Source: a virus
IMG/VR virus record: IMGVR_UViG_3300025030_000067
Span: 26,535 to 90,534 of that record
DNA length: 64,000 bases
Direction: 5' to 3' (one strand)
The translations under genes were made by a program, and so were the position numbers. Below the pieces are notes generated by a model. It did no database searches and had not been told where the DNA came from. It saw only the letters and a program-made list of their open reading frames with translations. Shown piece by piece: positions 5,507 through 54,922 of this stretch. The stretch's first letter is position 1, and the number at the start of each line of letters is the position of its first letter.

Positions 5507-6946
5507 TTATGGCGCAGTGTATGTACCGCAGTTTTTGTAGATCATCACTCGTTCAGGAGCTTTGATCACGGAAACGATGTACAGCAGCAGCATGAACGGG
5601 AAGGTTGTGCCTACCTGTGGCAGCGGCATTTTGATAAGCGGTGTCATCTGAGCGATGGCGATGTCGCGTGCGTCCGGCTTGATCACCAGTGCGATGCCGT
5701 CAGAAGGTTTACCGGCTGCATCCACAGTGCTCCATTCGCCCTTGTCAACGAAGGTCAGGTCGCCGGAAGCGGTCTGCGCAACCTTGGCAATCCATTTCGC
5801 GTCAGAACCGTTTGCCAGCTTACCGCGATAGATGCGGTATCCAGTAGCGCCGGCCAGGCGGGTAACTACGATGGTCACCTTTGTGGTGGCATCAGGTACT
5901 GCAATGGCACTGGTAATGGTCCCGAGGGATTCGCCAGTGTCGTTGAACGCGGCCACTGTGTAGTAATATGTGGCGGCGAGGTGCTGACCGGCAGCGTCGT
6001 CGGCTGCTGCTGGCTGGGTTGTGATTGCTGGTGCGGCAGGAACGCCAGCCGGTGCGGCAGCCAAAGGTGCGGCAGCTTCGACTTCCTGGAGCAGAATGGA
6101 GTAGTCGAAATTGAACCGACCGAACTGCGTATCGTATCCGTCAAGGTTTTGTCCCAAGGAATACGTCGGCTGCTGTCCGCCGTCCTTGTTGAAGCGAACC
6201 ATGTTGCGGGATGCGAACTGCTGGTTCAATCCTGCGGTTACGTGTGCCGACTGCAGCACGTTGTACCCGTTGACACTGGCCTGCTTGCCGGTGGTTACCA
6301 GGGACTGGGCGGCAACGTCCAGTTCATTGAAAGTCAGGGGAGCGCCCTTCATATCAATTACGTTCGCCGAGTTGGCAGCGGTCAGTGCAGCCAAGAGCCC
6401 GTCGAAGTTTACTTCTTCGCCGTTCTCGTCCTTGATTGCAGACTGGCCGAACACCAATTCACGCTCTACTTTTTCGAGAAGCTCCAGCGTGCGGTCACGG
6501 TTCTCGCGGACGGTGGGGTCTTCGAAAGCGCCGCCATTCTGTCCAGTGATCAGCATCTGGTGAGTGATCCCGCCGAGTACGCCGAGGAACTTGTTGTAGA
6601 TACCTTTACGCTCAAACGTAGAGGTTCCGCCCTTTGGTGCCCCGCCCTGACGGAAGCCAGCGCCACCGCTGCGGTTGGAACCGAAGCCTTTGTGGACGTT
6701 GTACTCGTAGTAAGGCTGCGCACTGGGAACCTTGGGGAGCATGTTGAACAGCTTGAAGTGCTGCTCGGTGATGAGTACTTCTGTCATCACTGCATCCAGG
6801 TTTTCCAGCATGAGTGGTCCGGACTGAATGCCTCCGGGACCGCTGTTGGTGGTTGCGAGTGCTTTGCGCAGGTCGTCGACGATACCGTCACCGGTCTGGT
6901 TGTAGCCACCGCTTTTCAACATCTGATCGTAACTTTGTACTTCCAT
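5507..6946 (-). CDS. Major capsid protein with inserted Ig/Fn3-like domain
   Basis: 479 residues. It follows scaffold and prohead protease genes, the usual order for the shell protein. Residues 55-290 carry the shell core (FKLFNMLPKVPSAQPYYEYN; ERELVFGQSAIKDENGEEVNFDGLL; LDVAAQSLVTTGK). Residues about 300-415 are an Ala/Pro-rich linker and an Ig/Fn3-like domain (TYYYTVAAFNDTGES; GYRIYRGKLANGSDAKW) that would project from the capsid surface. The core resumes in the C-terminal 60 residues (IKMPLPQVGTTFPFMLLLY). The N-terminus holds LRKA (26-29) and SGPLMLENLD (42-51), a block also present in the protease, so the N-terminal arm is probably removed on maturation. Identification rests on context and pattern. 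Confidence 0.82.
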   Translation of the reverse strand: MEVQSYDQMLKSGGYNQTGDGIVDDLRKALATTNSGPGGIQSGPLMLENLDAVMTEVLITEQHFKLFNMLPKVPSAQPYYEYNVHKGFGSNRSGGAGFRQGGAPKGGTSTFERKGIYNKFLGVLGGITHQMLITGQNGGAFEDPTVRENRDRTLELLEKVERELVFGQSAIKDENGEEVNFDGLLAALTAANSANVIDMKGAPLTFNELDVAAQSLVTTGKQASVNGYNVLQSAHVTAGLNQQFASRNMVRFNKDGGQQPTYSLGQNLDGYDTQFGRFNFDYSILLQEVEAAAPLAAAPAGVPAAPAITTQPAAADDAAGQHLAATYYYTVAAFNDTGESLGTITSAIAVPDATTKVTIVVTRLAGATGYRIYRGKLANGSDAKWIAKVAQTASGDLTFVDKGEWSTVDAAGKPSDGIALVIKPDARDIAIAQMTPLIKMPLPQVGTTFPFMLLLYIVSVIKAPERVMIYKNCGTYTAP

Positions 6947-6977
6947 TTGGGTGTTCCTCCTTTTGTTGTACGGTGCT

Positions 6978-7664
6978 TTACAGACCGATTATTTTTTTGA
7001 CGTCGTCGGGGAGACGGCCAACGTCTTTGTAAGTGCCGAATATCGACAGGTGACGAGCGTCTACCTGCCCTGCCTGTACTGCTTTTGTCAGCGATTCTGA
7101 AATATCAGATATTGATTTGGTGAGTTCCTCCACCACTTCAACACCGCCGATGCCGAACTTAGCCTGGCCGGGAGATAGTGGTTTCGCTCCGAGTTCGGTT
7201 ACCGACTTCTCGATGCGTTCCATATCTTCATGGCGAGATTTGGCAAGGGATGCGATCACCTTGGCCTGCTTGATGTTCAAATTCAGCAGAGCAGCGACAG
7301 ACTTTTTCAGCGAGTCAACTTCGCCGGCAAGGCCTACCGTCATCTCCTGGACCGATTTTTCGAGAGACGCGAACGCATCGCTGGCTTTTACCAGCTCTTC
7401 ATCGTAGTTCTCGTCCTGCGTGGATTTGTCGAGGTCGGCTTCACCTTCGCCATCTCCCTCTTCTTCGCCAACGGGCTCTGCGCCTTTGTCGTCCTCGTCA
7501 CCGTCCGGCTCTTTGTGGCTTTTGGTCAACTCATCGCCGAGTTCTTCTTCCAGAGACTTGGTCAACTCGTCCAGTTCGTCTTTGGGCTCTTCTTTGACGG
7601 ACTTTTCAAGATCATCAAGCTCTTCCATCGCCTTATCTAAGGCTTCTTGATTCTCTACACTCAT
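6978..7664 (-). CDS. Acidic scaffold-like head assembly protein with L-x-K-S repeats
   Basis: 228 residues, very acidic in the first half, with a predicted coiled coil at about residues 105-150, as expected of a capsid scaffold encoded between protease and shell genes. It contains about nine evenly scattered copies of L-x-K-S/A (DLEKSV, ELTKSL, ELTKSH, DLDKST, SLEKSV, SLKKSV, RIEKSV, ELTKSI, SLTKAV). If the prohead protease cuts near this motif, the scaffold would be shredded for exit from the head. Strong ribosome-binding site AAAGGAGG. Scaffold role is inferred from position and composition. Confidence 0.68.
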   Translation of the reverse strand: MSVENQEALDKAMEELDDLEKSVKEEPKDELDELTKSLEEELGDELTKSHKEPDGDEDDKGAEPVGEEEGDGEGEADLDKSTQDENYDEELVKASDAFASLEKSVQEMTVGLAGEVDSLKKSVAALLNLNIKQAKVIASLAKSRHEDMERIEKSVTELGAKPLSPGQAKFGIGGVEVVEELTKSISDISESLTKAVQAGQVDARHLSIFGTYKDVGRLPDDVKKIIGL

Positions 7665-7691: not shown

Positions 7692-8648
7692 TTACGGTTT
7701 ATGTAAAATTCCCGCTGCCTTTACTAACGCTGCGAGGTCTGGCCTGTATTGGGCACCATGTATTGCTTTCCGCAGGAAGTTGATGCTCTGGCCTTTTGAA
7801 TATCCCTGACATTTTTGCATATGTTCGACGGCCCCGGTCAGACCACCGTTGAACTTCCCGGCTGAGTTAAAGCATCCGCAGTCCGTGTTGTTGCCGTACA
7901 GGATGCCGCTCATGCCTCTGTCGAGGTTTTCCAGCATGAGTGGTCCGGCTGACGTAGTGGACATCGCTTTATTCAGATCTTCGACGTCTTCTTTGCTCAT
8001 AGGTGCATGTGCTCCACAGCTGTGCCCTGGGGTATAGAGCGGGTGATCTGGTGAGCATTTGCCGCAGCAGAACGACTTACGGAAGAGCTCTATGGTGGCA
8101 TCCTCGTTAACCGGCTTGTGTGTCACTGCGAGATTGCAAACTACCGACCTCACGATCTTGTTGCCTTTGCGCTGCAGCACTCCGCCTTCTACCGAATACG
8201 CCAGTGCTCGTTTGCCTCCGGACTTTTGAAACGCGAGCCCCAGCTCCCACATCTCGTCGGCCAGCTTGGTCTGCTCGCTGGTGGTTTCTCCGGTGGGTTT
8301 GAGCAGTTCTCCTTCTACCCATAGGCCTTTGTCTCTGATCTCAGCTCTTGTGGGATAGCCGATGATGATCGGCATCTTGGCGCCTTTGACTACTCCGCAG
8401 CTCGGGCACTTGGACAGTGCATGGATGTGTCCGCATTTGAGGCACTTGGCGTAGTGGTCATAGTTCAGGTATCCGGATTTCATAAGCGGTCCGAAGTCGA
8501 TTCCGGATTGCAAGATAACTTCACCGTCCTGGTCCATGCTTTCGGTGGATGCGTATCCGCGAACGATACGGCGATCTCCACCTGCGCTCTTGCGTAGCTC
8601 CATCTCGATCGGTAACTCAAACAGGACTTGGTTGTCGGTTTCTTCCAT
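7692..8648 (-). CDS. Prohead maturation protease (S78/HK97-type) with zinc-ribbon insert and capsid-like tail
   Basis: 318 residues. Residues 25-180 match the HK97-family prohead protease core: RIVRGYASTESMDQDGEVI, then catalytic His in NYDHY (about 65) and catalytic Ser in ALAYSVEGG (about 152), and a strand ending AVTHKPVN. Right after the His is an inserted zinc ribbon (CLKCGHIHALSKCPSCG, about 69-88). The C-terminal half is not part of the family: it has Cys clusters (CCGKC, CGC) and a segment, LNKAMSTTSAGPLMLENLD, nearly identical to the capsid protein's N-terminal arm. It also carries LRKS at 18-21 and LRKA near the end. It processes capsid and internal proteins during head maturation. 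Confidence 0.85.
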   Translation of the reverse strand: MEETDNQVLFELPIEMELRKSAGGDRRIVRGYASTESMDQDGEVILQSGIDFGPLMKSGYLNYDHYAKCLKCGHIHALSKCPSCGVVKGAKMPIIIGYPTRAEIRDKGLWVEGELLKPTGETTSEQTKLADEMWELGLAFQKSGGKRALAYSVEGGVLQRKGNKIVRSVVCNLAVTHKPVNEDATIELFRKSFCCGKCSPDHPLYTPGHSCGAHAPMSKEDVEDLNKAMSTTSAGPLMLENLDRGMSGILYGNNTDCGCFNSAGKFNGGLTGAVEHMQKCQGYSKGQSINFLRKAIHGAQYRPDLAALVKAAGILHKP

Positions 8649-11207: not shown

Positions 11208-14200
11208 CTATGCCTCCAACTGTTTAATGTGGCGTTCGAGCATGGCGCCGACTTCTGCCGAGCCTTGCTTGCCGAGCCGTTCATGACCTTTGTATTTAAG
11301 GATGTTTTTAGCTGTTTTGGCGTATTTTTCGGGGGTCGAATAATCCGGGTGGTCGGTGTTTATCCCCATGCCGCCGCGACCTTTTTTATCGTGCCGCTCG
11401 AATGCGTCGTGAAGTTCCTTGACCATCTCATGGTGAGGTTGCCCTTTTTGCGCGACATTCGCTGTTGCTCCGGATGCTGTGGTGCGAGTGTATGCAGCAT
11501 GATCGGAGTGCTGTGACTTGCGTAAGATATGCGCTACAGAGAGGGCACAACTTTTCCTGACTGGCTCCTGTACTGTTTTGGGGCTTCCGTCGCCCTTTGG
11601 TCGTTTCGACTTGATCAGGTACATTTCACGTCTCCTTCCCTTAAATAACCTCACTTGCAGTAGTCCTGAGTGATCACCCGGGAGATGATCGGCCATGGGC
11701 TCTTTGTTTTCTTTGGCCGGCATGTTTTCTTCTTTCCATTTTTCCCAATGGGTGTGGGCTCCGTGGACCTCTTCTTCTGCATCGAGTATCCGCTGCTTGG
11801 TGTGATCATCCAGTGTGCCCCAGTGGGGGAGGTGGGCGAACCGTTCCTGTCGCAGTTTATGGAGCTGGTGGCTGCTCTCGGTACGTGCCAGCTTGATTGC
11901 GTAACGCTTCACTCGGCTGTCTTCGTGGGCATCGATGTGTGCAAGTGCCCCGGATGCAGTCGTGCGGTCGTAGGCTGTGACGTGCGATTTCAGGAGCCGA
12001 ACGGCTGCGGTTTCGCTGCTGACTCGTCCTTGCCTGCCTGCTCTCGTTTGTTCTTGGGTTTCTTCTTTTTGGACTTTGCAGCTGCAGCTTTCTTCTTGTC
12101 CGCAACATCCATTGTGTCCGCATCCGCAAGAGCTTTTTTCAAGAGTTCCGACTTCTTCTTGTACTTTTCCTCGTCGCTTAATTCCGCCATTGCTTCCTCC
12201 GTGCGATTTTATCAGGTGTGTTAAGGCTGGCCGCTGTAATGACTTTTTCACACCATCATCGGAACTATTCACCTTGTCAAGAGCCTGCTTTACGACCTGC
12301 TCTTTGTTCTTTGGCTCCGCTGGTCCCGAGAACATGTCCACCTCGGGGTTTTCCCGGCTGGCAACCTCGTTTTTGATGCCGTTGCTGATGGCTCGGAAGA
12401 CGTTTTCCAACCTGTTGCGAGATCCGGCTCGGTCGCTGATCGCCAGTATCATGTCAACGGAGTGATCAGTTTTGAACTTCGGGGTGTCTCCGGTGAAGTC
12501 CAGCGAGCCAGCGTTTTTAAGAGTGTGCTCCAGCTCTGCCTTACTCTGGTTCTGGTGTGCCAGTGTGTACTCGATCGCTTCCATCATGTCCGGCACCACG
12601 TCCAGGTCGTCATGGCCTTTGATCTGGGCGAAGTCGCCGACGCACCCGTTCAGCGCCTTGAGTATGTTCCTGATCTTCGGCTTGGCGCTCTCGGCTTGCA
12701 GCTCGGTCAGCATGGAGCTGCCGTATACTTTCGTGAAGACCGCGTTCTGGATCCGCTCGATGCATTTCTTGTTCGGGTCGCCGTCAGCATCGCGCAGGCC
12801 GGCTGATTCGTTCTTGCCCAGCTTGTCGAGGAATCCATTGATGAAGTCCATATTTTCGTCGTTGTAGATTTCACCGTCTTCGTCGACCGCGAACTTCTTG
12901 AGCAGGCTGTCGTCGATTCTGGCCGAGTCATTCCATGCCTGTTCTGCTGGCGAAGAGCCGAGGTTGCCGGTGTCGTTGGCTTCTCTGGCAAACTCTGCCC
13001 GGTCGGTATTTTTGTCGTCATCGCTGCGGACTCTGACCAGTACCGGGTTTTTCATCTTCTCGACATCTTCCGGCTTTATGCCGAACGTGTCCGCTTCGCC
13101 TTTCAGCCATTCCTTGTAGTGATCCGCCAGTCCGCGCTTGTACGCTTCCGTCAGGGCGATGGTGCGACCATTGCCGCTTTCGACAGCTCCATCCTTGCCG
13201 ACGATTGGAGCGCCATGAGCAGCCATTGAACCGGCACCGAAAAGTTCCGGCTTGATATCGTTCATCATGTTTGCCATTTGCATCTGGCTCGATAGGCGTT
13301 CCCGTTCTCGGGGCTGTATCTCTTGAGGGTAAGCTCTGTTGATATGTCCCTGGATGGTGTGGGAGGTCGTCAAGTCGTCGGATTCCACCAGCGCATACTT
13401 ACTGCTGACCTCGTTCATCTTGGCCGTGTAGGCTTTGTTCTCTTTGCCCATGACGAACTTAGGCTCTTTCTTGCCGGTGTCCACGCTCTGGACTTCCTTC
13501 TTGCCCTGGAGGCTGGATATCTGCTCTTTGTCCTTGCTCGGGTCGCCACCGGCGAAGTGTACCGTGTGGCCGTCGCTATCCTTCGACATGATTATGGAGT
13601 GGCCGTCTTTCTCGTATTTCGTCGCGGTGCTGTCGCGATCGACCTGGTGACCGTAGTGCTTCAACAGCTTCTCGCGGTAGTCGTCAATGGCCGCCGTGTA
13701 GGTGTTGCTCCGGCTGGTGTTTATGTTCTTGAGTACTGAGACTGGGTCGTCGCTGGCTGCTGCGGCTTCGCGCATCTTCTTCATGCCGCGTTCGGCTGTC
13801 TGTAGAGCTCCGTTCTCCCGGTTCTTCGCCTTGATCTCTTCATGCTCCGGCATGTCTTCTTTTTTGCCGCCCTTGTGCCCTTCGATTGGCTTCACCTGAT
13901 GGACTTCGCGCTCTTTCCAGCCTCGGCTCTTGAGGTGTTCGGCCAGCTGATCGCCGTGTTTCAGTTTGGCTCCCGAGTGTATCTCTTCTCCATGCTCATT
14001 TTGGTGCTTGAGCACGTCCTGGTGCTTCTTGACACGTTTGTCGTCGTGCTCTTGCACTACCGAGCCGTCCTGCCTGGTATATTGCTTTACGTGGGACTTG
14101 ATCAGCATGGACCGATCCATGAGATTGTCGGCTCTCAGGCTCTTGGTGAATATGTCGATATCCATCAGCGCCTGTTCCCAATTATTGAACCGGATGGCCC

Positions 14201-15710
14201 GGTCGTCGAGATACACGTCCGCGATTGGCTTTCCGTCGTTGCTGTCTTCTGGTTGATCGGTTTTTTTGTTGATCTCGTCATATGGGATGTCGTTAAATCC
14301 GAGATAGCCTCGCAGTGCCGGTGTTTCCTGCCGAGTGGTGAAAATGATGATTTTCCATCCCGCTTGCTTAAGTGCCTGCATGGCTGCCGAGACTTGCGGC
14401 AACGGTTCTCCGAACGTCTCGGCCCCTTGCCATCCCTGCGAGTAATCGGCAATTACTCCGTCGAAGTCCACACAGATGGTCTTCTGGTGGATGCTTGCCG
14501 ACTTTCTGAGCGTGGTCTCTTCCCGCAGGCTTTTGAGGAAGCCGAGCAGCTCCTTGGCTCCCTTGGTCCTGGCTAGTCGTACCAGCGCCGTTTGCATATG
14601 CGACTTGACCGCCGCTGCGTCCCATCTGTCTACTGCTTCTGATCGAACACCTGTCCGGTTGAGCGCTGCCGCGATATCCTGTTCTTTGTATCCGTGGTCG
14701 AACCGACCAAGGCCGAATTTCATTTTGATTATGGCGGATGCAATCGGGTCGTCGAGTGCGTCCAGCTGCTCTGCGATACCGTTTGCGAGTCCTTCTTGTT
14801 TAGCTGCGTTCGATTCGTTGGCTGGTCCTACTGCGGCTTTTGCTGCGATATCGCGCATGCCTGTTTCGTAATCGTCTTCACCCTGGGTGTCGTATGACTG
14901 TTCTTCCTTCAGTCGGTCGTTGTTGGTGATCAGGTGGCGCATGGCCGCCGTCTTGCCGGTACGGGCTATCGTTTTGGCGACGTTGCTCTCTGATGCGGTG
15001 CCGGCCAGATAATTCTTGAACTCCTGTATGTCGGCATCGCTGGCGTTGGTTCCGGATGTTCTCAGGGCTCCGATCGCCGCCGTGATGTATTCGCTGTACA
15101 GTTCGTTCGCTGCCGGGTCATCGTTGTGGAGCACTCCGTTGGCGACAACGTAGTTCGGGTTATATCCGTTTCTGCTGGCCAGGTGTTTGAGCGTCCCTTT
15201 CATTCTGTCAACTATGGCCGGGTGCTGCAATATCTCCGCCTCTGGCATGCCAATGCGTTCCATCCCGACCAGCGCCCTGCGTGTGCTTTCCTCTGCCGTC
15301 ACACGGCCACCTGTGCCCTTTGGTGCTTTCTCCGCCGTATGCTCTTCTTCTGTCCAGATGTGGTCTCGGCTAATATCTTTTATATGCGGAGGGTTTAGTG
15401 TGTATCCTTCGCGTACTGGTTTAACTTCGTATCCGGTCTCGTGGCTGCCACCGACGATATGTCCGCGCTTTTTGCGGTTCATCTCCGGGGTGCGGTAGTA
15501 GATCTTTTCGCCATGTTTCGGCTCGGAGCTTTCTTTGCCTCGTACCTTCACCTTGCGTTGGTGTTCTGCGACTTGTGCGATGGCCCCTGACGCGAGGTGT
15601 CGTGTGCCTGCGTGTACCGTATGGACTTCTTCATGCTTGGGCGGCTGGTAGTCGAACAGGCTCATTTGTGATTTTCTGAGGTAGAAGAATTGCGTGATGT
15701 GTTTGATCAT
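11208..15710 (-). CDS. Giant polyvalent virion protein (1,500 aa): HAD and DdrB/ParB-like domains, repeated KS-HV-YTR modules
   Basis: Start chosen at the ATG five bases after GGAGG; a GTG four codons upstream overlaps that site. Domains, numbered from the GTG frame: 150-400 helical, with a region (about 325-390) resembling sigma-70 region 4 (weak); 415-510 HAD-type phosphatase (VDFDGVIADY, FTTR, DVYLDDR); 755-1140 DdrB/ParB-superfamily domain of phage polyvalent proteins (VESGNGRTIALTEAY). A Cys cluster (1199-1215) follows. L-x-K-S recurs at about 15, 405, 540, 1170, 1194, 1243, 1368 and 1400, several times followed by HV...Y-x-R-TTASGA. Polyvalent proteins are known to be carried with injected DNA and protect it; that role is inferred here. 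Confidence 0.75.
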   Translation of the reverse strand: MIKHITQFFYLRKSQMSLFDYQPPKHEEVHTVHAGTRHLASGAIAQVAEHQRKVKVRGKESSEPKHGEKIYYRTPEMNRKKRGHIVGGSHETGYEVKPVREGYTLNPPHIKDISRDHIWTEEEHTAEKAPKGTGGRVTAEESTRRALVGMERIGMPEAEILQHPAIVDRMKGTLKHLASRNGYNPNYVVANGVLHNDDPAANELYSEYITAAIGALRTSGTNASDADIQEFKNYLAGTASESNVAKTIARTGKTAAMRHLITNNDRLKEEQSYDTQGEDDYETGMRDIAAKAAVGPANESNAAKQEGLANGIAEQLDALDDPIASAIIKMKFGLGRFDHGYKEQDIAAALNRTGVRSEAVDRWDAAAVKSHMQTALVRLARTKGAKELLGFLKSLREETTLRKSASIHQKTICVDFDGVIADYSQGWQGAETFGEPLPQVSAAMQALKQAGWKIIIFTTRQETPALRGYLGFNDIPYDEINKKTDQPEDSNDGKPIADVYLDDRAIRFNNWEQALMDIDIFTKSLRADNLMDRSMLIKSHVKQYTRQDGSVVQEHDDKRVKKHQDVLKHQNEHGEEIHSGAKLKHGDQLAEHLKSRGWKEREVHQVKPIEGHKGGKKEDMPEHEEIKAKNRENGALQTAERGMKKMREAAAASDDPVSVLKNINTSRSNTYTAAIDDYREKLLKHYGHQVDRDSTATKYEKDGHSIIMSKDSDGHTVHFAGGDPSKDKEQISSLQGKKEVQSVDTGKKEPKFVMGKENKAYTAKMNEVSSKYALVESDDLTTSHTIQGHINRAYPQEIQPRERERLSSQMQMANMMNDIKPELFGAGSMAAHGAPIVGKDGAVESGNGRTIALTEAYKRGLADHYKEWLKGEADTFGIKPEDVEKMKNPVLVRVRSDDDKNTDRAEFAREANDTGNLGSSPAEQAWNDSARIDDSLLKKFAVDEDGEIYNDENMDFINGFLDKLGKNESAGLRDADGDPNKKCIERIQNAVFTKVYGSSMLTELQAESAKPKIRNILKALNGCVGDFAQIKGHDDLDVVPDMMEAIEYTLAHQNQSKAELEHTLKNAGSLDFTGDTPKFKTDHSVDMILAISDRAGSRNRLENVFRAISNGIKNEVASRENPEVDMFSGPAEPKNKEQVVKQALDKVNSSDDGVKKSLQRPALTHLIKSHGGSNGGIKRRGKVQEEVGTLEKSSCGCGHNGCCGQEESCSCKVQKEETQEQTRAGRQGRVSSETAAVRLLKSHVTAYDRTTASGALAHIDAHEDSRVKRYAIKLARTESSHQLHKLRQERFAHLPHWGTLDDHTKQRILDAEEEVHGAHTHWEKWKEENMPAKENKEPMADHLPGDHSGLLQVRLFKGRRREMYLIKSKRPKGDGSPKTVQEPVRKSCALSVAHILRKSQHSDHAAYTRTTASGATANVAQKGQPHHEMVKELHDAFERHDKKGRGGMGINTDHPDYSTPEKYAKTAKNILKYKGHERLGKQGSAEVGAMLERHIKQLEA

Positions 15711-15752
15711 CCTTGCCTCCACTGTGGTCGTAGCAATAATACTATGCTATGC

Positions 15753-25131: not shown

Positions 25132-26865
25132 TCAGTCGAGTGTGATCTTGAGGAACTTCGTCTCGGGCTGTGACTTCCGCATTGACTTGTAATACTGGTC
25201 ACTGTCGCCGCCCTGTTGATCGTCTCCCTGGTCTTCGTCCTGATCCGGTTCTTCTTCTGCCTGTTGCTGCTGTGCGAATGTGTTCAGGTAGTTCGGGATC
25301 GGCACGTCTGCAGGGTAATTCCATGGGTTCTTGTCGTACTTCTCTTTGTTCTCGTCGCCCTCCTGGAGCTTGCTGTACTGCTCTGGCGGCAGGTAGAATC
25401 CGATGGGGGCTCCGCCTTCTTCCATGCGACATTCGTTCTTGGTGATCCATTTGGAGACTCGGCTGGTGCGGATATCGACCGCCTGTTTCTCGTCTTCCGG
25501 GTTCAGGCCAACAACTATCAGCTTGAGGTCGTCATATCTAGGTTTAATGAGTGCGTCGGTGAGCCATTCCGCCATGTCGGTGATGGAAGGGATGAGTCCG
25601 TGTTCTTTCGAGAACTCAATTTCTCCGGAGGCATTACCGGCAAAGATGCTACCGCCGCCTGCGCCACTGTCGGTCTCCATGTTCAGTGTGCTGGGGTGGG
25701 CTCCGTAGGCCGAGCATTTGAACATGACCATCATCCTGATCATCTGGTCGAACAGCATGTCCTTTGGAGACTCGCGGAGCTTCACGCTTTCGATCTTGAA
25801 GTTCTCCATGTCGCCGGCAGGGATTACCGGCAGGCGCCAGTTGTTGCCGACTCCACCAGCCTCGCCAAGTATCTGCTGCTTGAACGCGGCCAAGCCTTCT
25901 TTGTCGTAGTCGCCGGAGACCGTCAGCACCTGCTCGGGATAGTTGGTCTTGAACATCTCGCGGTTGTATGTGAATGCCATGAGCAGGCTGGTGGTGATGT
26001 CCAGTGACTCTTCCAAGCGGGATGTACCGTATCCCCATCGGTTGAGCCGGTCGCTCGGGTTACTGATGTGGACGCTGATTTCGTCGTCGGTGAATGCAGC
26101 TGTGATCATACCGTCGATCATCTGGACATAGCTGGCACGGGCGAGGTCAAACCCGGTGGAGTACGACATCTTGTTTATCGTGTCTCGGCCTACCTTGCCG
26201 TTGCTCTCGTTCTTTTGAGCCCATGCCCGAATTGACTCATCCACGTTCTTGATCGTCTCTCCTGGCAGCCAGTGGAATGCTGCGTAGCCTTGGCCGTCTC
26301 GGCGTTTGTATCGGAGGATGCATTTGCGGTCGATGATCAGCTCCGTGCGGGTCAGAACGCCGACGAGGTCTTTCAATCGGGTATGTGGCCGGACGTTGTG
26401 CGGGTAGAGGTAGATGTGTTCGGTGGGCGTCGGGTCGCTGATGAATTTCTCCATCTCGTGGCAGCGTTCTTTATCCTGTCTGGTGACCTTGTAGTCGGGA
26501 TCATCTGCGCGGTCGTGAACAACTCTGAATCCAATCTCCTTGTTCTTGCCCTCATTGGCCTTCTGCCAGATGCGTTTCTGCTGGTCGGTCCGGGCTCTGA
26601 TCAGGATGCGGTCGAGGGTGGATTTTTCTGCGGCTTCGTACAGGATGGAAAACTGCGGGGTGCCTATTGGCTTTTCTCGGGCTCCCATTACTATTGAGTT
26701 GTTTAATGCGAATTTGGAGAAGAAAGACGCTTTATTTTCGTCTCTTCGCATTTTATTAGCTTCTGATTTTATCAGGTCGTCCGCTGAATGTTTTGGCACC
26801 AATAATCCTGATGAAAGTTGCACTGACTCTTCAAACACTCTGTTCAGGAATAATTTGTTATGCAT
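25132..26865 (-). CDS. Portal protein
   Basis: 577 residues. The mid-protein segments NRWGYGTSRLEESLDITTSLLMAFTYNREMFKTNYPEQ and VSGDYDKEGLAAFKQQ match the stem and crown helices of phage portals, followed by a loop and the phrase GAHPSTLNMETDSG seen in SPP1/HK97-class portals. The C-terminus is acidic and glutamine-rich (EEEPDQDEDQGDDQQGG) and ends YYKSMRKSQPE, again the K-S signature. Twelve copies form the DNA entry ring. The next gene upstream is a HNH endonuclease that overlaps its start by 8 bases. Confidence 0.88.
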   Translation of the reverse strand: MHNKLFLNRVFEESVQLSSGLLVPKHSADDLIKSEANKMRRDENKASFFSKFALNNSIVMGAREKPIGTPQFSILYEAAEKSTLDRILIRARTDQQKRIWQKANEGKNKEIGFRVVHDRADDPDYKVTRQDKERCHEMEKFISDPTPTEHIYLYPHNVRPHTRLKDLVGVLTRTELIIDRKCILRYKRRDGQGYAAFHWLPGETIKNVDESIRAWAQKNESNGKVGRDTINKMSYSTGFDLARASYVQMIDGMITAAFTDDEISVHISNPSDRLNRWGYGTSRLEESLDITTSLLMAFTYNREMFKTNYPEQVLTVSGDYDKEGLAAFKQQILGEAGGVGNNWRLPVIPAGDMENFKIESVKLRESPKDMLFDQMIRMMVMFKCSAYGAHPSTLNMETDSGAGGGSIFAGNASGEIEFSKEHGLIPSITDMAEWLTDALIKPRYDDLKLIVVGLNPEDEKQAVDIRTSRVSKWITKNECRMEEGGAPIGFYLPPEQYSKLQEGDENKEKYDKNPWNYPADVPIPNYLNTFAQQQQAEEEPDQDEDQGDDQQGGDSDQYYKSMRKSQPETKFLKITLD

Positions 26866-27334
26866 TGGCCGTCTCCTGATAATTCTTCCAAGACTGGTTG
26901 TTTAATATTTTAGCGGTCTGAGCGATTGATAGTCCGTATCTCTGGCCGATTGATTTATATGTTCCGGTTTTCCCGTTTCGTCGCATTTCCTGCACTTGCT
27001 TGAGTGTTACCTTTGCTTCGTTGTGACGTTCTCCGTCTGGTTGACGCCGCTTCTTGGTCCTGTCTGCTACGTTTTCTATGTTTGTTCCGACGAACAGGTG
27101 GTCGGGTCGGATGCATCTGGGGTTGTCGCATTTATGCAGGACTTGCAATCCTTCTGGTATCGGGCCGTTGTGCATCTCCCAAGAGAATCGGTGCGCTTTC
27201 CCCATTTTCCCGTGGTGGTGAAAGAACCCGTATCCGTCTTTATCTCTTGCTGCCTGCCACTCCCAGCACTCTTTGCTCTTGTCTACTTTCTCCCAGAAGT
27301 TTTCTTCCGGCGTTCTGACTGGCCATCTTGGCAT
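26858..27334 (-). CDS. HNH homing endonuclease with C-terminal helix-turn-helix
   Basis: 158 residues. ECWEWQAARDKDGYGFF and AHRFSWEMHNGPIPEGLQVLHKCDNPRCIRPDHLFVGT form a complete HNH_3-type domain with the H-N-H residues and structural CxxC. Residues 115-155 (VTLKQVQEMRRNGKTG...SIGQRYGLSIAQTAKILNNQSW) are a DNA-binding helix-turn-helix as in AP2/HTH homing enzymes. It overlaps the portal gene start, so it sits exactly at a conserved gene boundary. Confidence 0.86.
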   Translation of the reverse strand: MPRWPVRTPEENFWEKVDKSKECWEWQAARDKDGYGFFHHHGKMGKAHRFSWEMHNGPIPEGLQVLHKCDNPRCIRPDHLFVGTNIENVADRTKKRRQPDGERHNEAKVTLKQVQEMRRNGKTGTYKSIGQRYGLSIAQTAKILNNQSWKNYQETANA

Positions 27335-27411
27335 TTCACATCTCCGTGTGCGTCCCGATTATTCTCTGTGCCCAGGACGGTCGGAGTTCCGTCTTTTCTC
27401 CCGCTAAAGAT

Positions 27412-27448
27412 AGGGCACAGCATGTCTTGTTAGACAATACTGTGCCCT
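27412..27448. promoter_or_regulatory. Long double-stem hairpin next to an operator motif
   Basis: AGGGCACAG (27412-27420) pairs with CTGTGCCCT (27440-27448), and inside it TGTCT pairs with AGACA across a TGTT loop. There is no T-run on the minus strand after it. The operator motif follows five bases later. It could terminate or process the transcript from the gene at 27483-27725. Confidence 0.5.
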
Positions 27449-27452
27449 AATT

Positions 27453-27465: not shown

Positions 27466-27482
27466 AAACTGTTTGCCGCTGG

Positions 27483-27725
27483 TTAGCCTTTAACCATATA
27501 CAGAGTTTTACCTCTTATAATTGCAAGAAGTTCTGCATCTGTCTTCTCTTGGACCGGTCCATATACCGTCTCTGCAACACCGTGAATCCAATTAAGGAGC
27601 TTCTCTGCATCCGCGATCACGTCATCGCTATTTATCCCTCGTCCATGGCTGTCCGCACTTTCCAATATTTCTTTACTCATCTTCAAACACGTTAATCTTA
27701 ATTTTCGTTGGTTCATTGGTTTCAT
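27483..27725 (-). CDS. Small helical protein next to the TIGR array (80 aa)
   Basis: Helical (CLKMSKEILESADSHGRGIN; DAEKLLNWIHGVAETVYG), no family recognised. It lies directly after the left TIGR array on the minus strand, downstream of tas, so it could be cotranscribed with the system. The first MKP is preceded by AAAGGGAG. Confidence 0.55.
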   Translation of the reverse strand: MKPMNQRKLRLTCLKMSKEILESADSHGRGINSDDVIADAEKLLNWIHGVAETVYGPVQEKTDAELLAIIRGKTLYMVKG

Positions 27726-27728
27726 CTC

Positions 27729-27872
27729 CCTTTTGGGTTTAATGTTTGGGCGCTTTGTAGATCTGGTTTTCTAATTATGCTTGGCACGCTTCCTTGTATT
27801 GGTGTTCTTATGTGGAGTGGCTCGCTACGTCAACGTGGTTTTCTTTTGCACCTTGGCTATGCTGCTTGCTTC
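27729..27872. repeat. TIGR array, tas-distal part: four 36-bp units
   Basis: Units begin at 27729 (degenerate), 27765, 27801 and 27837. Each has a 9-bp box A (GGTTTTCTT type), 8 variable bases, a 9-bp box B (TGGCTCGCT type) and 10 variable bases. Variable pairs are ATTATGCT/TCCTTGTATT, ATGTGGAG/ACGTCAACGT and TTGCACCT/TGCTTGCTTC. The last unit overlaps the tas stop codon and its box B has decayed. The period is exactly 36 bp with constant segment lengths. This is the structure reported for TIGR arrays, which yield 36-nt dual-spacer guide RNAs. Not a CRISPR: repeats are too short and alternate with two spacers. Confidence 0.85.
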
Positions 27873-28864
27873 TCCCCGCCATGGACGTATCCCAGCTTCG
27901 CCTCGTGGTAGGGTAGCGACACCGGCAGACCCTCAATGGTCCTCCAAGCTGTGTAGAGGTCGATCAGGAACATCTTGACCATGTAGCGCATCGCGGCGTT
28001 GTGTCGGTGCCCCTTCTCGCTCACGGTTTTCTCTTTGCCCTTGTCGTTGGTTTCGGTTCGGTCCTTCCAGTTGGTGTGATTTTCCAGACGGTTCTTGTAG
28101 TCGTCATATATCGTCCGGTATTTGCTCTCACCGGCTCTCAGGAAGCTGCTGGCGAGCACTCCCATCAGTTTTGTTTTGAGGAATGGGTTGAATGTGATTC
28201 CGTTCCTGATCGCTGAGTTACCTTCTTTGTCGATATACGCTACAGTCTGGAGATGCTCTTTCCTTCGTGATCGGCCTTTGCCATCATCTGCGCAGTCGAG
28301 TCCTGCATACTTCCAGATGCTGCTCGGGTGTCTGGACTTGGTGATGTCGATCTCGCTGATGATCACTCCTGCCATGGCTGGGCCTATGCCTCTGACGCCT
28401 TCGAGGAATTCGACGTATATCGGGTAATCTTCGAGTATCTTGCCGAGCATCCGGAAGTGCCGGTTCTCTTGGGATTCGAGGTCTTTGTATTGCGATATCA
28501 GGCAGAGCTCCGTGTAGTCACTGATCACTGGATTTCCCTTGAATTTCTTTTTGCTGGGCAGGCCGTCTGCCGTCAGTAGTGAGTAGTGTTTATCGAGCAG
28601 TTGGGACACAAGCCCTGCGATCTTCTTTTCTTCTTTTTCCGTCTGTTCCAGCTCCGCGACTGCTCCGGTGGTGACCAGTTTGTTGGCATTCCGTATCCGT
28701 GCCAGCAGTTGCTGCGATTCGGCGTCGAGTCCTTCTTCTGGTTCGCTTGGTGCCTGGCCGAGTTTGGCCTTGAAGTTGCCGACTATCCTGTTTCCGGTTT
28801 GGATGCGGAGCTTCTGGATGTCGTAGCTCCCTCTTACGATGGTTTTCAGATTTCCTGCTGACAT
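27857..28864 (-). CDS. tas: Tas protein: Nop/IS110-C-terminal-like guide-RNA-binding protein without nuclease domain (TasA-like)
   Basis: 335 residues. Residues 60-150 are helical with a coiled coil. Residues 152-190 carry FLEGVRGIGPAMAGVIISEI and SSIWKYAGLD, the Transposase_20 signature of IS110 C-terminal domains, which is related to the Nop domain of box C/D RNP proteins. The N-terminal DEDD/RuvC catalytic domain of IS110 transposases is absent, and no HNH motif is seen, so this is not an active transposase. Flanking 36-bp dual-spacer arrays on both sides identify it as a TIGR-associated protein. With no fused nuclease it matches the TasA type and would bind DNA under RNA guidance. Ribosome-binding site AAGGAGG at the edge of the right array. 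An operator-like motif copy (28232-28244) lies inside the gene. Confidence 0.85.
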   Translation of the reverse strand: MSAGNLKTIVRGSYDIQKLRIQTGNRIVGNFKAKLGQAPSEPEEGLDAESQQLLARIRNANKLVTTGAVAELEQTEKEEKKIAGLVSQLLDKHYSLLTADGLPSKKKFKGNPVISDYTELCLISQYKDLESQENRHFRMLGKILEDYPIYVEFLEGVRGIGPAMAGVIISEIDITKSRHPSSIWKYAGLDCADDGKGRSRRKEHLQTVAYIDKEGNSAIRNGITFNPFLKTKLMGVLASSFLRAGESKYRTIYDDYKNRLENHTNWKDRTETNDKGKEKTVSEKGHRHNAAMRYMVKMFLIDLYTAWRTIEGLPVSLPYHEAKLGYVHGGEKQAA

Positions 28865-28870
28865 GATGCC

Positions 28871-29302
28871 TCCTTGGTTGGTTTGGTGGTTCCTCTCTTT
28901 AGTAGTGGTTTTCTTAAACCGAATGGCTCGCTATTGTCTGTTGGTTTTCTTAATGTTAATGACTCGCTCTACGTATCTGTGTTTCTTTTGATGAATGGCT
29001 CGCTTCGTTATGCTGGTTTTATCTTCTTTATCGGCTCGCTCACTACATTTGGGTTTCTTTTCTGGAATGACTCGCTTCGGTCGTTTGGGTTTCTCCCATT
29101 TCTTGGCACGCTCAATATTGCTGGGTATCTCTTTTTTTCTGGCTCACTTCGTCAGGATGGGTTTCTTCTGCGTTTTGGTTCGCTCTTTCATCATGGTGTT
29201 ATTACAAGTGCTGGCTCGCTGTCTTCACTTGGGTTTCTTTTTGAATTTGGCTCGCTATGAAAAGATGGTTTCCTTTCTCATTATGGCTTCTCTTTCTATA
29301 AG
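28871..29302. repeat. TIGR array, main part: 10 good 36-bp units plus degenerate ends
   Basis: Units start at 28907, 28943, 28979, 29015, 29051, 29087, 29123, 29159, 29195 and 29231; those at 28871 and 29267 are decayed. Consensus: GGKTTTCTT, 8 variable, TGGCTCGCT, 10 variable. Spacer pairs in order: AAACCGAA/ATTGTCTGTT, AATGTTAA/CTACGTATCT, TTGATGAA/TCGTTATGCT, TTCTTTAT/CACTACATTT, TTCTGGAA/TCGGTCGTTT, CCATTTCT/CAATATTGCT, TTTTTTTC/TCGTCAGGAT, CTGCGTTT/CTTTCATCAT, ACAAGTGC/GTCTTCACTT, TTTGAATT/ATGAAAAGAT. All differ, while boxes and lengths hold. Open frames seen across it give a 12-residue pseudo-repeat and are judged non-coding. The transcribed strand is not settled. Confidence 0.88.
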
Positions 29303-29327
29303 TCTCCGTCACAGAATGATGCCGATG

Positions 29328-32556: not shown

Positions 32557-33531
32557 TTATCCTATAAAAGCGGGACGGAAGCCGACGTAGCTGTACACGT
32601 TGGAGCGCTGATTGATCAAGCTCAAGGCAGCCAGGCCAGCATTCGAGGAGTAGCTCCAACCGCCACCCCGGAGCGGCATGGCCTCGAAGTTTTCGGTGTT
32701 ATCGGCCCATACGTGGCCTGGTATGCCGAGGCTGCCGTCGCAGGGACACAGCAGCGCCTGGTAGATGGATGCCGGGAGGGGTTGATCTGCCTTGGCGGTG
32801 ATTTCGGCGAATGGCGTGCTCAACCAGTCTCTGTCGGTGATCTTGTTGGAGATCTCAATGTCGCTCTTTCCGTTGATGACTGCACCGGTTTCCGCCCATG
32901 CTGATTCTTTGGCTGTGAATTCGTTGTTTCTCGGCATGATGATCTTGCCACTGGCCAGCTTCAGTCCGTCCACCCATTCCCAGACGTTGCCCACCAGATC
33001 GGCAATCCCGTGCATTGTGCCATCGTGGCGCCATGTATCCGGTCCTGATCCGGTCAGGGTCTTGCCGCCGTCGCCCGATGGCATGCCGGACTCTTCTTCA
33101 TTCTTGTGCGACTTGCCATAATCGGTGTTGCCGTGCGCGTCTCCGTATCCGTTTTTTGCCATCCAGAGTGCGACTGCTGCCCACTCCCAGTTGGTGAGCA
33201 TGTGGAAGCCTGGGCCAGCGGCTATGCAGGCCGCTCGTGCGTTGTCGAAGTTGATGCCGGTTTTAGGGGTCTGGTAGGGGAGTGAGATCGCTTGGCCGTT
33301 GCTGATGATGGCCTGGTAGGTGCCGATGTGGATCTCGCTCTTTTCGACGCCGTTGACGATGAAGGCCGGGTGCAGTCCAGTTCCCATGCTTTCGCTGATG
33401 TCCTCGCACTTGAACGCTGGTATCACGTTGAAGTATGACGGGTAGCCCTTGGTGGTCCGCCTGACGGTTTGCTTGCCCTCTGATGCTCTTTCTACCTGTT
33501 CCCTCAGTGAATCCTTGATGATGATGTTCAT
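32557..33531 (-). CDS. DGR-type variable protein with FGE-sulfatase/C-type-lectin fold
   Basis: 324 residues. Residues 80-324 show the formylglycine-generating-enzyme (C-type lectin) fold: FHMLTNWEWAAVALW, HGIADLVGNVWEWVDGL and the ending LRGGGWSYSSNAGLAALSL ... SNVYSYVGFRPAF. This C-terminus is the canonical variable region of diversity-generating-retroelement targets. The Asn, Ser and Tyr codons (AAT, AAC, TAC, AGC) fall where adenine-templated changes occur. A GAAA hairpin follows. Such proteins are usually receptor-binding tips. No reverse transcriptase, Avd or template repeat is seen in the window. Start has AAAAGGAGG. Confidence 0.85.
   Translation of the reverse strand: MNIIIKDSLREQVERASEGKQTVRRTTKGYPSYFNVIPAFKCEDISESMGTGLHPAFIVNGVEKSEIHIGTYQAIISNGQAISLPYQTPKTGINFDNARAACIAAGPGFHMLTNWEWAAVALWMAKNGYGDAHGNTDYGKSHKNEEESGMPSGDGGKTLTGSGPDTWRHDGTMHGIADLVGNVWEWVDGLKLASGKIIMPRNNEFTAKESAWAETGAVINGKSDIEISNKITDRDWLSTPFAEITAKADQPLPASIYQALLCPCDGSLGIPGHVWADNTENFEAMPLRGGGWSYSSNAGLAALSLINQRSNVYSYVGFRPAFIG
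32566..32670 (-). other. Presumed DGR variable region (VR)
   Basis: Covers the codons from LRGGGW to GFRPA at the end of the variable protein gene. Boundaries are approximate, since the template repeat needed to set them is not in the window. Confidence 0.65.
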
Positions 33532-39027: not shown

Positions 39028-40499
39028 TCACTTCTTTGCTCTCTGCTTCTCAACCTCAGAGAAAGGTATCAGCTTCCCCTTGTCGCCCATCAGCATCGGT
39101 TCCTCGCCGCAGTAGTCGAAGTATCGCTTGAGGGATGCTTGTGCATACCCTGGACTGAACTCCATGCCTCTGCCTTTGCGGCCTGATTTGCGGCAGGTGA
39201 CGATGGTGGTGCAGAGCCCGAAAAGAGGTCGAGCACGATCTCTCCGGGGCGGCTGCTTGATCTCACGTTCCGCTCCACGAGTCTGACTGGCTTCATGGTC
39301 GGGTGTATTTCGCTCTTGCCTGGCTTGTCGATTCTGATGATTGTTGTGGGCTGTGCGTTACGGACTTCTGTCAGGTGTGCAATGAGCTGTTTCTTGTCGA
39401 GCTTGGAGAGATCGAGGTCATCGTCGATCACGGTGGTCTGCGTGAAGTCTCCGGCGAAGTAGTGAGCTGCCCCTGACTTCCATCCGTACAGGATTGGCTC
39501 GTGCTTGTTGTTGTAGTCGCTGCGTGCGAGTACTGCTGCGTTCTTTACCCATATCAGGCATTGCTTCCACATGATGCCTGGTGTGTTGCAGATCGCGTTG
39601 CGGAAAACGTCTCCGACCCCGCCACCTTCGGCATGAGCTACGTAGAAGCATCCACCTGCCTTGAGAGCGTGGTGCATGGACGAGAATACCGCCATGAGGA
39701 ACTTGCGGAAATCTTCCTCGTTGAGGTTGTCGTTGTCTATTTTTCCTGCCTTGGTTTCGTAGGCAATGTTGTAGGGTGGATCCATCCAGACGCAATCGGC
39801 CTTATCTCCCATCATCAGCTTGTCGATGTCAGCGATGCTTGTGGAGTCGCCACAGAGCAGGCGGTTCTCCCCGAGTACCCAGAGGTCTCCGAGTTTGACG
39901 AATGGTTCTGGCACCGGTTCCACGTCAGGGTCTTCTTCGCCGAGCGTTTCTTTCTTGCCAGCGTCCAGTAGGTCTTTCAGTTCCTGTTCGTCGAATCCGG
40001 TCAGGCTCATGTCGTATCCGCTGTCGTTCAACTCCTGGAGTAGTTGCGCCAGCAGGTCATCGTCGAATTCTCCACCGTGTTGGTTGGCTGCAATGTTGGC
40101 CGCACGTTCCTTTGGTTCGTCCCAGGCTACTTCTCTGTATGAGAATTTGCCGTCTGGGGTTTCGATATAACCGATTGCGACGGTTCCGGTGTTGTCGGAG
40201 TGTTCTTCTTTGGTGATCGGCCATGACGAGTCAAGATTTTTCCCGCGCTGGTGTCCTGATACCAATCGTCCGGTTGTGCGGTTGAATACTACCCCTCCCA
40301 GATCGCCGAATTCCTTCATTGCCGCATTGAGCATCTCAAGCTTTTGTGGGGTGATCGTTCTGGGGTTGTATCCGCTGGAGCGAAGGTCAGCCGCAGTCGT
40401 TGGTGACATCTCTGTTGCCGGGGTCGCGAGGTTGCCCACGGTTTTATCTGGATCTTTCTTGCGTTTTACTTTGCTGCGTATCTTGGCTGTTACTGTCAT
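39028..40499 (-). pseudogene. ParB-domain / adenine or cytosine-N4 DNA methyltransferase, broken by a 1-base deletion near 39212
   Basis: Residues 1-165 are a ParB-like nuclease domain (GVVFNRTTGRLVSGHQR). From about 215 it is a beta-class methylase: DCVWMDPPYNIAYE (DPPY), WVKNAAVLARSDY, and EIVLDLFSGS (SAM motif I). The frame then changes to nonsense (APPSSPAANQ). The other frame continues correctly with TTIVTCRKSGRKGRGMEFSP and GYAQASLKRYFDYCGEEPM, ending at a TGA at 39028. One G missing in GGCTCT-GCACC explains it. Either a sequencing error or a true frameshift removes the last 60 residues and motif X. Confidence 0.85.
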
Positions 40500-41086
40500 G
40501 GTGATGGCTCCTTTGATATGTCTGCTGCAAATGTGAGGTCTGACAGGTATATTCCTTTGGTGGCGTTGCTGTATCTGCCTTGCAGGTACAGCCTGACCAT
40601 TTCAAGGCTTATTTCGAGCTCCTCTGAGATGCTTTTATTGCTTTTGCCTGCTTCCTTCATTTCAGCGATCTGCACTTTCTTGATCACCGCCTCTTCTGCG
40701 TAATACTGCCCCTTAAACTCGTCTGACCTGAAAGTGCGGCATTGTTTTATGTCGCCCTGTCTCATGTATCCAATGGTTTTCCTGTCCAGGGCTACGAGAG
40801 CGAATATATCGACGTCTTGAGAGGTGTATCTCTTCTGTTTGTTTTTGCCGTTGGTCTTGATGTGGAAGAAGTAGGCGGGTGTGCTTTCGCAAACTCGGTT
40901 GGCTGATGGATTCTTTTTTGCGGCCAGCGTGGTCTTAACTTGGATCTTGAGCAGTCTGCTATCTACATCTACCACCACGTCGTACGGGAGCCCTTGCTCT
41001 GACGGGTAGGCCACATATCCTTGCAGGATCAGGTCTGCGCATACGAGGTATTCACCTGCTTTGCCGATTTGTAATGCGTTTTCCAT
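40496..41086 (-). CDS. PD-(D/E)XK endonuclease-like protein (196 aa)
   Basis: IGKAGEYLVCADLILQGYVAYPSEQGLPYDVVVDVDSRLLKIQVKTT shows the E...D...Q-x-K catalytic pattern (Glu about 12, Asp about 36, QVK about 49-51) of the group-I-intron-associated PD-(D/E)XK family. Residues 140-175 (VQIAEMKEAGKSNKSISEELEISLEMVRLYL) form a C-terminal helix-turn-helix. Together with the adjacent GIY-YIG gene it suggests a homing hot-spot. ATGA overlap with the methylase gene. Confidence 0.75.
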   Translation of the reverse strand: MENALQIGKAGEYLVCADLILQGYVAYPSEQGLPYDVVVDVDSRLLKIQVKTTLAAKKNPSANRVCESTPAYFFHIKTNGKNKQKRYTSQDVDIFALVALDRKTIGYMRQGDIKQCRTFRSDEFKGQYYAEEAVIKKVQIAEMKEAGKSNKSISEELEISLEMVRLYLQGRYSNATKGIYLSDLTFAADISKEPSP

Positions 41087-54703: not shown

Positions 54704-54832
54704 TGTAGCGTATGCCTAAATTATCACTTGCATCTGTTTTGCCGATATGGCACTGTTCCTGAAAATTAAATAGCAACCGCTGGTCCAGAGCGTGTTTAAA
54801 TTATGGTGGATCCGGGAAACCGGTTGCACCCG
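54704..54832 (+). promoter_or_regulatory. Leader element B, homologue of the one at 51194
   Basis: TGTAGCGTATGCC, then CACTTGCAT in the register of TTGACG, and TCCTGAAAATTAAATA at the same distance, with no gaps against element A over 70 bp. It ends in a terminator before the cytosine methylase gene. Confidence 0.65.
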
Positions 54833-54869
54833 CCCCTGAGGAAGCTGGACCCTTCCGATGGGGTTTTTT
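54833..54869 (+). terminator. Intrinsic terminator before the cytosine methylase gene
   Basis: CCCC...GGAAG pairs with CTTCC...GGGG (with a 3-base internal loop), followed by TTTTTT. Parallels the terminator at 51332. Confidence 0.8.
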
Positions 54870-54880
54870 ATTGTCTTTTG

Positions 54881-54893
54881 TGTAGCGTATATC
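54881..54893 (+). promoter_or_regulatory. Dispersed 13-bp operator-like motif
   Basis: Exact TGTAGCGTATATC followed by AAT, between the terminator and the methylase ribosome-binding site AAGGAA. Confidence 0.6.
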
Positions 54894-54922
54894 AATTTAA
54901 TTATTTTACAAGGAACGTGCTG

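What the first reader, a model, noticed from the sequence alone, without database searches (positions are those of the whole stretch)
27729..29302. A TIGR-Tas system: 36-bp dual-spacer arrays flanking a nuclease-less Nop-domain protein
Seen: 14 or more units with an exact 36-bp period, two conserved 9-bp boxes (GGKTTTCTT and TGGCTCGCT) and two non-conserved segments of constant length (8 and 10 bp), lying on both sides of a gene for a Transposase_20/Nop-type protein that lacks the IS110 catalytic N-terminus. Known: TIGR arrays encode 36-nt tigRNAs with two spacers that pair with both DNA strands, held by Tas proteins with a Nop domain; TasR and TasH have nuclease domains and TasA none. Inference: this is a phage-borne TasA-type locus. 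It would bind DNA and perhaps block rival phages, host genes or replication, instead of cutting.
Basis: partly seen in the sequence, partly recalled or inferred. Interest (0 to 1): 0.97.

Follow-up and report, generated by a model that had tools for sequence, protein, structure and literature searches.

The report
Phage TIGR-TasA RNA-guided DNA-binding system
A bacterial virus carries a small, removable cassette of one protein gene and 14 split-guide RNA units, a real but already described kind of system (TIGR-Tas) that should steer a non-cutting protein to chosen DNA sites outside the virus's own genome; comparison with about 70 related arrays shows an unreported pairing rule between the two halves of each guide.

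Summary
The finding is real and correctly identified. On the minus strand, 11 units (29292-28897) precede and 3 units (27858-27755) follow a 335-residue gene (27857-28864). The protein passes the NCBIfam TIGR-Tas cut-off, its model matches TasH and TasR cryo-EM structures, and it has no nuclease domain, so it is TasA type. Relatives carry the same arrays, and the edge repeat shows compensatory base changes as published for tigRNA. TIGR-Tas, including phage TasA, was described in 2025, so this is a new member of a known kind. New observations: (1) sister phages lack a 1.84-kb cassette at a clean empty site; (2) spacers turn over fast, with in-register duplication of units; (3) spacer-pair matches to own and related phage genomes do not exceed chance; (4) in 1074 pairs the last bases of spacers A and B are strongly coupled (Watson-Crick pairs enriched, T-T at 0.28), and a weak codon-frame signal suggests some pairs read 17-bp targets sharing the central base pair. 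Likely function: RNA-guided binding and blocking of foreign or host DNA. Targets remain unknown.

The parts
28893..29292 (-). [quoted passage not shown]
   Evidence: lag-36 identity against shuffles
27857..28864 (-). tasA gene, 335 residues, Nop-domain Tas protein without nuclease domain
   Evidence: NCBIfam NF052498 134 bits, cut-off 100; AF2 model matches TasH/TasR, E about 1e-8
27751..27858 (-). Downstream TIGR array, 3 units; its first truncated edge repeat overlaps the tas stop codon (TAG at 27859-27857); ends with AGCG (3'-truncated edge)
27483..27725 (-). 80-residue ORF of unknown function, inside the cassette that sister phages lack
   Evidence: no Pfam, NCBIfam, PHROGs or PADLOC hit; absent from sister phages
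27482..29319 (-). Extent of the cassette (array, tasA, array, 80-aa ORF) missing at an empty site in L083 and L084; CGGCA present at both borders
27411..27449 (-). Hairpin (TAGGGCACAGTAT / ATGCTGTGCCCTA) followed by a weak T run; possible terminator of the operon
   Evidence: Inverted repeat I4; sequence; not called by the simple terminator scan

Best explanation
This is a TIGR-TasA system carried by a roughly 90-kb tailed phage. The minus-strand transcript holds 14 split guides; these should be cut into 36-nt tigRNAs (5'-AGCCA, spacer A, AGAAAMCCA, spacer B, AGCG-3') whose two ends pair through edge-repeat positions 2-7 and 3-6. A TasA homodimer (Nop fold, coiled coil, no nuclease) should bind one tigRNA, open a 17-18 bp DNA site by pairing spacer A to one strand and spacer B to the other, and bend and occlude the DNA without cutting it. 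Targets are not in the phage itself; the most likely role is guide-directed silencing of competing mobile elements or of host genes, as an optional cassette. Shown here: protein family and fold, array anatomy, RNA covariation, absence of a self-target excess, presence/absence and spacer turnover. Inferred: expression, processing, DNA binding, blocking, and the kind of target.
For: NCBIfam TIGR_Tas_endo 6.9e-39, 134 bits, cut-off 100. PDB sequence hits to TasR 9mty (1.4e-14) and TasH (3.2e-10). AF2 model (pLDDT 77.8) starts at the coiled-coil helix; the best 11 structure matches are all TasH/TasR, then an IS110 recombinase. Array 9/9/9/9 with truncated ends; same arrays in most of 26 relatives and in 62 of 64 further loci. 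Edge positions 2-7 paired in 97% (A-U 513, G-C 422, G-U 408) and 3-6 in 98% (C-G 1170, U-A 140), while loop positions 3-6 do not pair, matching the published edge/loop distinction (PMC12045711). TasA is the only gene recurring near most arrays. No own-genome target excess. Fast spacer turnover beside conserved flanks.
Against: No native target was found: IMG/VR scans with four guide targets gave 0, 2, 2 and 6 independent hits with no coherent pattern. Expression and processing are untested. The first base of each repeat is A (AG..CCA), not the U of the TasR UG..CCA motif, so one published box C/D pair is missing here.
Confidence: 0.85

Rival explanations
1. TasA regulates the phage's own genes or replication, with spacers matching its own genome.
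For: A non-cutting guide-directed binder could serve as a repressor; the cassette lies in the late-gene region of the minus strand.
Against: Own-genome matches of true spacer pairs equal those of re-paired spacers (A_rcB up to 3 mismatches 100 against 92 expected, up to 4 938 against 934); no zero- or one-mismatch site.
Confidence: 0.07
2. The 36-bp repeats are iterons or a centromere-like site bound by the protein as DNA, for partition or replication, and no guide RNA is made.
For: Repeats flank the gene of their putative binder; TasA loci with ParB-like genes are published (PMC12045711).
Against: Edge positions 2-7 and 3-6 covary as RNA pairs; the 9-nt spacers are hypervariable while the repeats are kept; no ParB-like gene adjoins; the family is known to bind 36-nt RNAs.
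Confidence: 0.04
3. The array is a protein-coding 12-residue repeat on the plus strand (ORF 28874-29260).
For: The period is a multiple of three and the plus-strand frame is open for 128 codons.
Against: In most of 18 relatives' arrays all six frames carry stops, and single-base length changes break the frame.
Confidence: 0.01
4. The gene is a decayed IS110 transposase and the repeats are unrelated.
For: Weak Transposase_20 match at threshold (21.4 bits, cut-off 21.3) and PHROGs label transposase.
Against: IS110 family model 27 bits against cut-off 140, while TIGR-Tas scores 134 against cut-off 100; most relatives start at the same coiled coil without a DEDD domain and carry the array.
Confidence: 0.01
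5. TasA recruits the separate neighbouring HNH protein (26858-27334) as a nuclease in trans.
For: The HNH_3 gene is the second gene downstream of tasA.
Against: It looks like a homing endonuclease, is itself missing from sister phages, and has no counterpart in G001, which has a TIGR locus; no HNH gene recurs near tasA.
Confidence: 0.03

Closest known systems
TIGR-TasA, dual-repeat type (Faure et al. 2025, PMC12045711; Flavonifractor plautii FpTIGR-TasA as the tested example)
   Same: Solo Nop-domain protein, 36-nt units, 9-nt spacers, edge and loop repeats, truncated array ends, phage-borne, arrays up- and downstream
   Different: Box D reads AG (or AA in many relatives) instead of the UG described for TasR; cassette includes an 80-aa ORF of unknown function; no clear terminator directly after the array
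TasR (9mty) and TasH (9w04, 21kl)
   Same: Nop fold and tigRNA logic; best structural and sequence matches
   Different: They carry RuvC or HNH nuclease domains; this protein has neither
IS110 bridge-RNA recombinases
   Same: Related Nop/Transposase_20 RNA-binding core
   Different: No DEDD catalytic domain, guide arrays instead of one bridge RNA
Box C/D snoRNP (Nop5)
   Same: Nop domain, box C and box D, two guides per RNA
   Different: TIGR systems target DNA; no fibrillarin or L7Ae partner; no k-turn

Membership tests
TIGR-Tas | Tas protein with Nop domain | tested here: met
   NCBIfam NF052498 134 bits over cut-off 100; structure match to TasH/TasR E about 1e-8
TIGR-Tas | Array of two alternating 8-12-nt repeats separated by about 9-nt spacers next to tas | tested here: met
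   9/9/9/9 units, 11 + 3; 454 of 484 units 9+9 in relatives
TIGR-Tas | Array starts with 5'-truncated and ends with 3'-truncated edge repeat | tested here: met
   AGCCA starts, AG../AGCG ends in both arrays
TIGR-Tas | Rho-independent terminator after the array | tested here: inconclusive
   None called on this strand; a hairpin with a weak T run lies after the 80-aa ORF
TIGR-Tas | Shared box C/box D in both repeats, with an extra covarying pair in the edge repeat only | tested here: met
   Edge 2-7 and 3-6 covary; loop 3-6 does not pair; first box D base differs from the published U
TIGR-Tas | Processing into 36-nt tigRNA bound by Tas | not testable with these tools
   Needs small-RNA sequencing
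TIGR-Tas | Tandem-spacer recognition of both DNA strands | tested here: inconclusive
   No targets found; A9-B9 coupling suggests the spacers meet at one DNA site
TasA subtype | No HNH or RuvC domain | tested here: met
   Only Transposase_20 reaches its Pfam cut-off; model starts at coiled coil H3-34
TasA with tasParB operon | ParB-like gene in the tas operon | tested here: not met
   Neighbouring genes are an 80-aa ORF, a 246-aa unknown and an HNH gene
IS110 transposase | N-terminal DEDD catalytic domain | tested here: not met
   Match only to profile positions 123-275, 27 bits against cut-off 140; model
CRISPR-Cas | Single 25-36-nt repeat with cas genes | tested here: not met
   Two alternating 9-nt repeats; no defence-family hit for tas or its immediate neighbours in PADLOC-DB

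The most novel reading that the evidence does not exclude
In this TasA clade the two 9-nt spacers of many tigRNAs share one central target base pair, so the unit reads a 17-bp site instead of two abutting 9-bp halves, and TasA is a programmable non-cutting repressor carried as an optional phage cassette.
Probability: 0.3. Interest if true: 0.65.

Novelty: new member of a known kind. Interest (0 to 1): 0.5.

Why it matters
What TasA does and what TIGR arrays target in nature are open questions in the founding paper. This locus supplies a natural test pair: sister phages about 86-95% identical in shared flanks, with and without the cassette at one site. The comparative set (more than 70 arrays) shows that spacers change much faster than their surroundings, that units duplicate in register, and that the last bases of the paired spacers are coupled, whereas the paper reports no obvious covariation between the spacers. 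If the shared central base pair is real, searches for native targets should use 17-bp as well as 18-bp patterns.

Tried and rejected
Coding-repeat reading: rejected, relatives' arrays have stops in all frames. Self-targeting and targeting of about 1 Mb of relatives' contigs: no excess over re-paired spacers or control arrangements. Targets in the sister phages without the cassette: nothing at two or fewer mismatches. Targets of the L028 and L029 arrays in their MAG genomes: none, while planted 18-mer controls were found. Exact IMG/VR scans of single guide targets: 0, 2, 2 and 6 independent hits without a coherent pattern. Start-codon idea: reconstituted targets resembling Shine-Dalgarno plus ATG were 11 against 4.3 expected in the first set (post hoc) but only 13 against 7.8 in a fresh set with the same rule; left as suggestive. 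A codon-model signal for abutting 18-bp targets (z 3.1-3.4) vanished when the last base of each spacer was masked (z 0.27, positive control 13), so it is not evidence that spacer pairs are cut from contiguous coding DNA; it reflects the A9-B9 coupling. Host identification by phage or plasmid similarity failed at DNA level.

Full report
OBSERVATION. The feature is real. On the minus strand, an 11-unit array (29292-28897) precedes, and a 3-unit array (27858-27755) follows, a 335-residue gene at 27857-28864. The unit is AGCGAGCCA, 9 nt, AGAAAMCCA, 9 nt; both repeats begin AG and end CCA. Identity at lag 36 is 0.56 across the larger array; the highest value over lags 20-99 in 300 Markov shuffles was 0.41. 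[quoted passage not shown] A mature guide would be AGCCA, 9, 9, 9, AGCG, that is 36 nt.

PROTEIN. NCBIfam NF052498 (TIGR-Tas system RNA-guided endonuclease) matches at 134 bits against a cut-off of 100, E 6.9e-39; the IS110 model reaches 27 bits against a cut-off of 140. In the PDB by sequence the best hits are TasR 9mty (1.4e-14) and TasH (3.2e-10). An AlphaFold2 model from 18 relatives (pLDDT 77.8) starts directly with the coiled-coil helix (residues 3-34) and has no N-terminal nuclease; the eleven structure matches with E below 0.001 are all TasH or TasR, followed by the IS110 recombinase ISCro4 at E 0.12. This is a TasA-type protein. The family name says endonuclease, but no nuclease domain is present.

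RELATIVES. A single-protein scan of IMG/VR gave 26 relatives, most with 36-bp arrays; profile scans found 232 and 206 matching places, of which 80 each were fetched, and 62 of 64 further loci carry arrays. In the first set 454 of 484 units have exactly 9+9 spacers. Only tasA recurs near most arrays (79 of 87 loci; the next family is in 14), so the protein probably acts without a fixed partner.

RNA EVIDENCE. Across 94 loci, edge-repeat positions 2-7 form A-U (513), G-C (422) or G-U (408) in 97% of copies, and positions 3-6 form C-G (1170), U-A (140) or U-G (50) in 98%; at the level of locus consensus there is no unpaired case. In the loop repeat, 2-7 is G-C but 3-6 does not pair. That is the edge/loop distinction described for tigRNA by Faure et al. 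(PMC12045711). A difference from their TasR motif is that the first repeat base is A, so the published U-A pair is an A-A here.

NATURAL HISTORY. The window belongs to a 90,534-bp virus record with terminase and portal genes related to those of known phages. A relative with a similar gene set, G001, has TasA at 76% identity, similar to portal (74%) and terminase (72%), but its TIGR locus sits on the other side of the 128-aa gene, and the two phages share no spacer. Fragments of closer relatives lack the cassette: in L083 and L084 the sequence runs ...GTAGCATCGGCA|AACAGTTTG..., while the window phage has ATCGGCA, then 1.84 kb (window 27482-29319: array, tasA, array, 80-aa ORF), then GCGGCA|AACAGTTTG. 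CGGCA at both borders fits insertion with a short duplication or deletion by microhomology; direction is undecided. L088 has the same empty core with a different left flank. These contigs are fragments, so a copy elsewhere in those genomes is not excluded.

SPACER TURNOVER. G005 and G006 are 96-97% identical in upstream flanks yet share 5 of 24 units at up to one mismatch per spacer; L010 and L028 are 84% identical across the locus and share 5 of 16. Shared units lie near both ends of the array as well as elsewhere, so there is no sign of end-polarised acquisition. Within arrays, identical spacers occur 24 times in register (A with A, B with B) and never across registers: units duplicate whole and A and B then re-assort.

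TARGETS. In the own genomes of 15 phages, matches of true pairs equal those of re-paired spacers in every arrangement, and a wider search of 996 kb gave no excess. Own-gene regulation is therefore unlikely. Scans of IMG/VR with single guides gave only chance-like hits. The L028 and L029 arrays have no target in their MAG genomes at 17 or more of 18 bases, with planted controls found.

A9-B9 COUPLING. In 1074 non-redundant pairs, the last base of spacer A and the last base of spacer B of the same unit are coupled (mutual information z 13.3, far above any other pair of positions). With expectation computed within each array and bootstrap over 72 loci: T-T 0.28 (0.15-0.43), A-T plus T-A 1.42 (1.32-1.52); G-C and C-G are also enriched (1.32, 1.30), G-T and T-G depleted (0.61, 0.70); 54 loci lie above and 8 below expectation for A-T/T-A. 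The coupling is weak or absent between A9 and B9 of the preceding unit. Faure et al. report no obvious covariation between spacers. Enrichment of strict Watson-Crick pairs with depletion of G-T fits two spacers reading the same central DNA base pair better than an RNA-RNA pair. As a check, units with complementary A9/B9 (349) show a codon-frame link at offset -1 (one shared base pair) with z 2.8, non-complementary units (725) 0.4. That is one of ten comparisons and was made after the coupling was seen, so it is a lead. A pure mixture does not explain why A-A is only mildly depleted.

MECHANISM. From the anatomy and the biochemistry published for the family: transcription with the neighbouring genes, processing into 36-nt guides by a host RNase that needs Tas, a TasA dimer with one tigRNA, unwinding and strong bending of a 17-18 bp site, no cleavage. 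Binding would block transcription or replication of the target. Fast spacer turnover, lack of self-targets and optional carriage favour foreign or host targets. These functional steps are inference.

VERDICT. Confirmed TIGR-TasA locus; new member of a known kind, with an unreported coupling rule and a natural presence/absence pair that make the open questions testable.

Noticed in passing
window 32569-32679 (gene 32557-33531, minus strand); template and reverse transcriptase at G000 7712-7822 and 6489-7541, outside the window: A diversity-generating retroelement with a remote target: the FGE/C-type-lectin-like gene in the window ends in a variable repeat 90% identical to a template about 51 kb away beside a reverse transcriptase gene; 11 of 12 mismatches to the template are at template adenines. 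A second variable repeat (8255-8365, 7 of 7 at adenines) lies beside the template.
   Followed up: partly
window 27353-27420 (-): Rfam int-alpA RNA (RF02996, 38.8 bits, cut-off 35.8) directly upstream of the HNH gene and overlapping the hairpin after the TIGR cassette.
   Followed up: no
window 26858-27334 (-): HNH_3 homing-type endonuclease gene next to the portal gene, missing from sister phages L083, L084 and L088 at this place.
   Followed up: partly
window 39090-40499 (-), 40496-41086 (-), 54803-56611 (+), 11208-15722 (-): ParB-like plus DNA methyltransferase fusion, a PD-(D/E)XK-type protein next to it, a C5 cytosine methylase, and a 1504-aa protein with a ddrB-ParB domain.
   Followed up: no
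window 57722-59041 (+): Protein matching the Gp3-like recombination directionality factor family, although no serine resolvase/integrase domain was found in this phage or in G001.
   Followed up: partly
L010 units 12 and 14, L028 unit 13: Reconstituted targets AAGGAG-N7-ATGGA look like a ribosome-binding site plus start codon, with the halves kept and the middle varying between units; fresh data support this only weakly.
   Followed up: yes
L016:5001-6041, L019:4986-6182: TasA proteins with insertions of tens of residues at the same place (after the YAGLD motif), unlike the other relatives.
   Followed up: no
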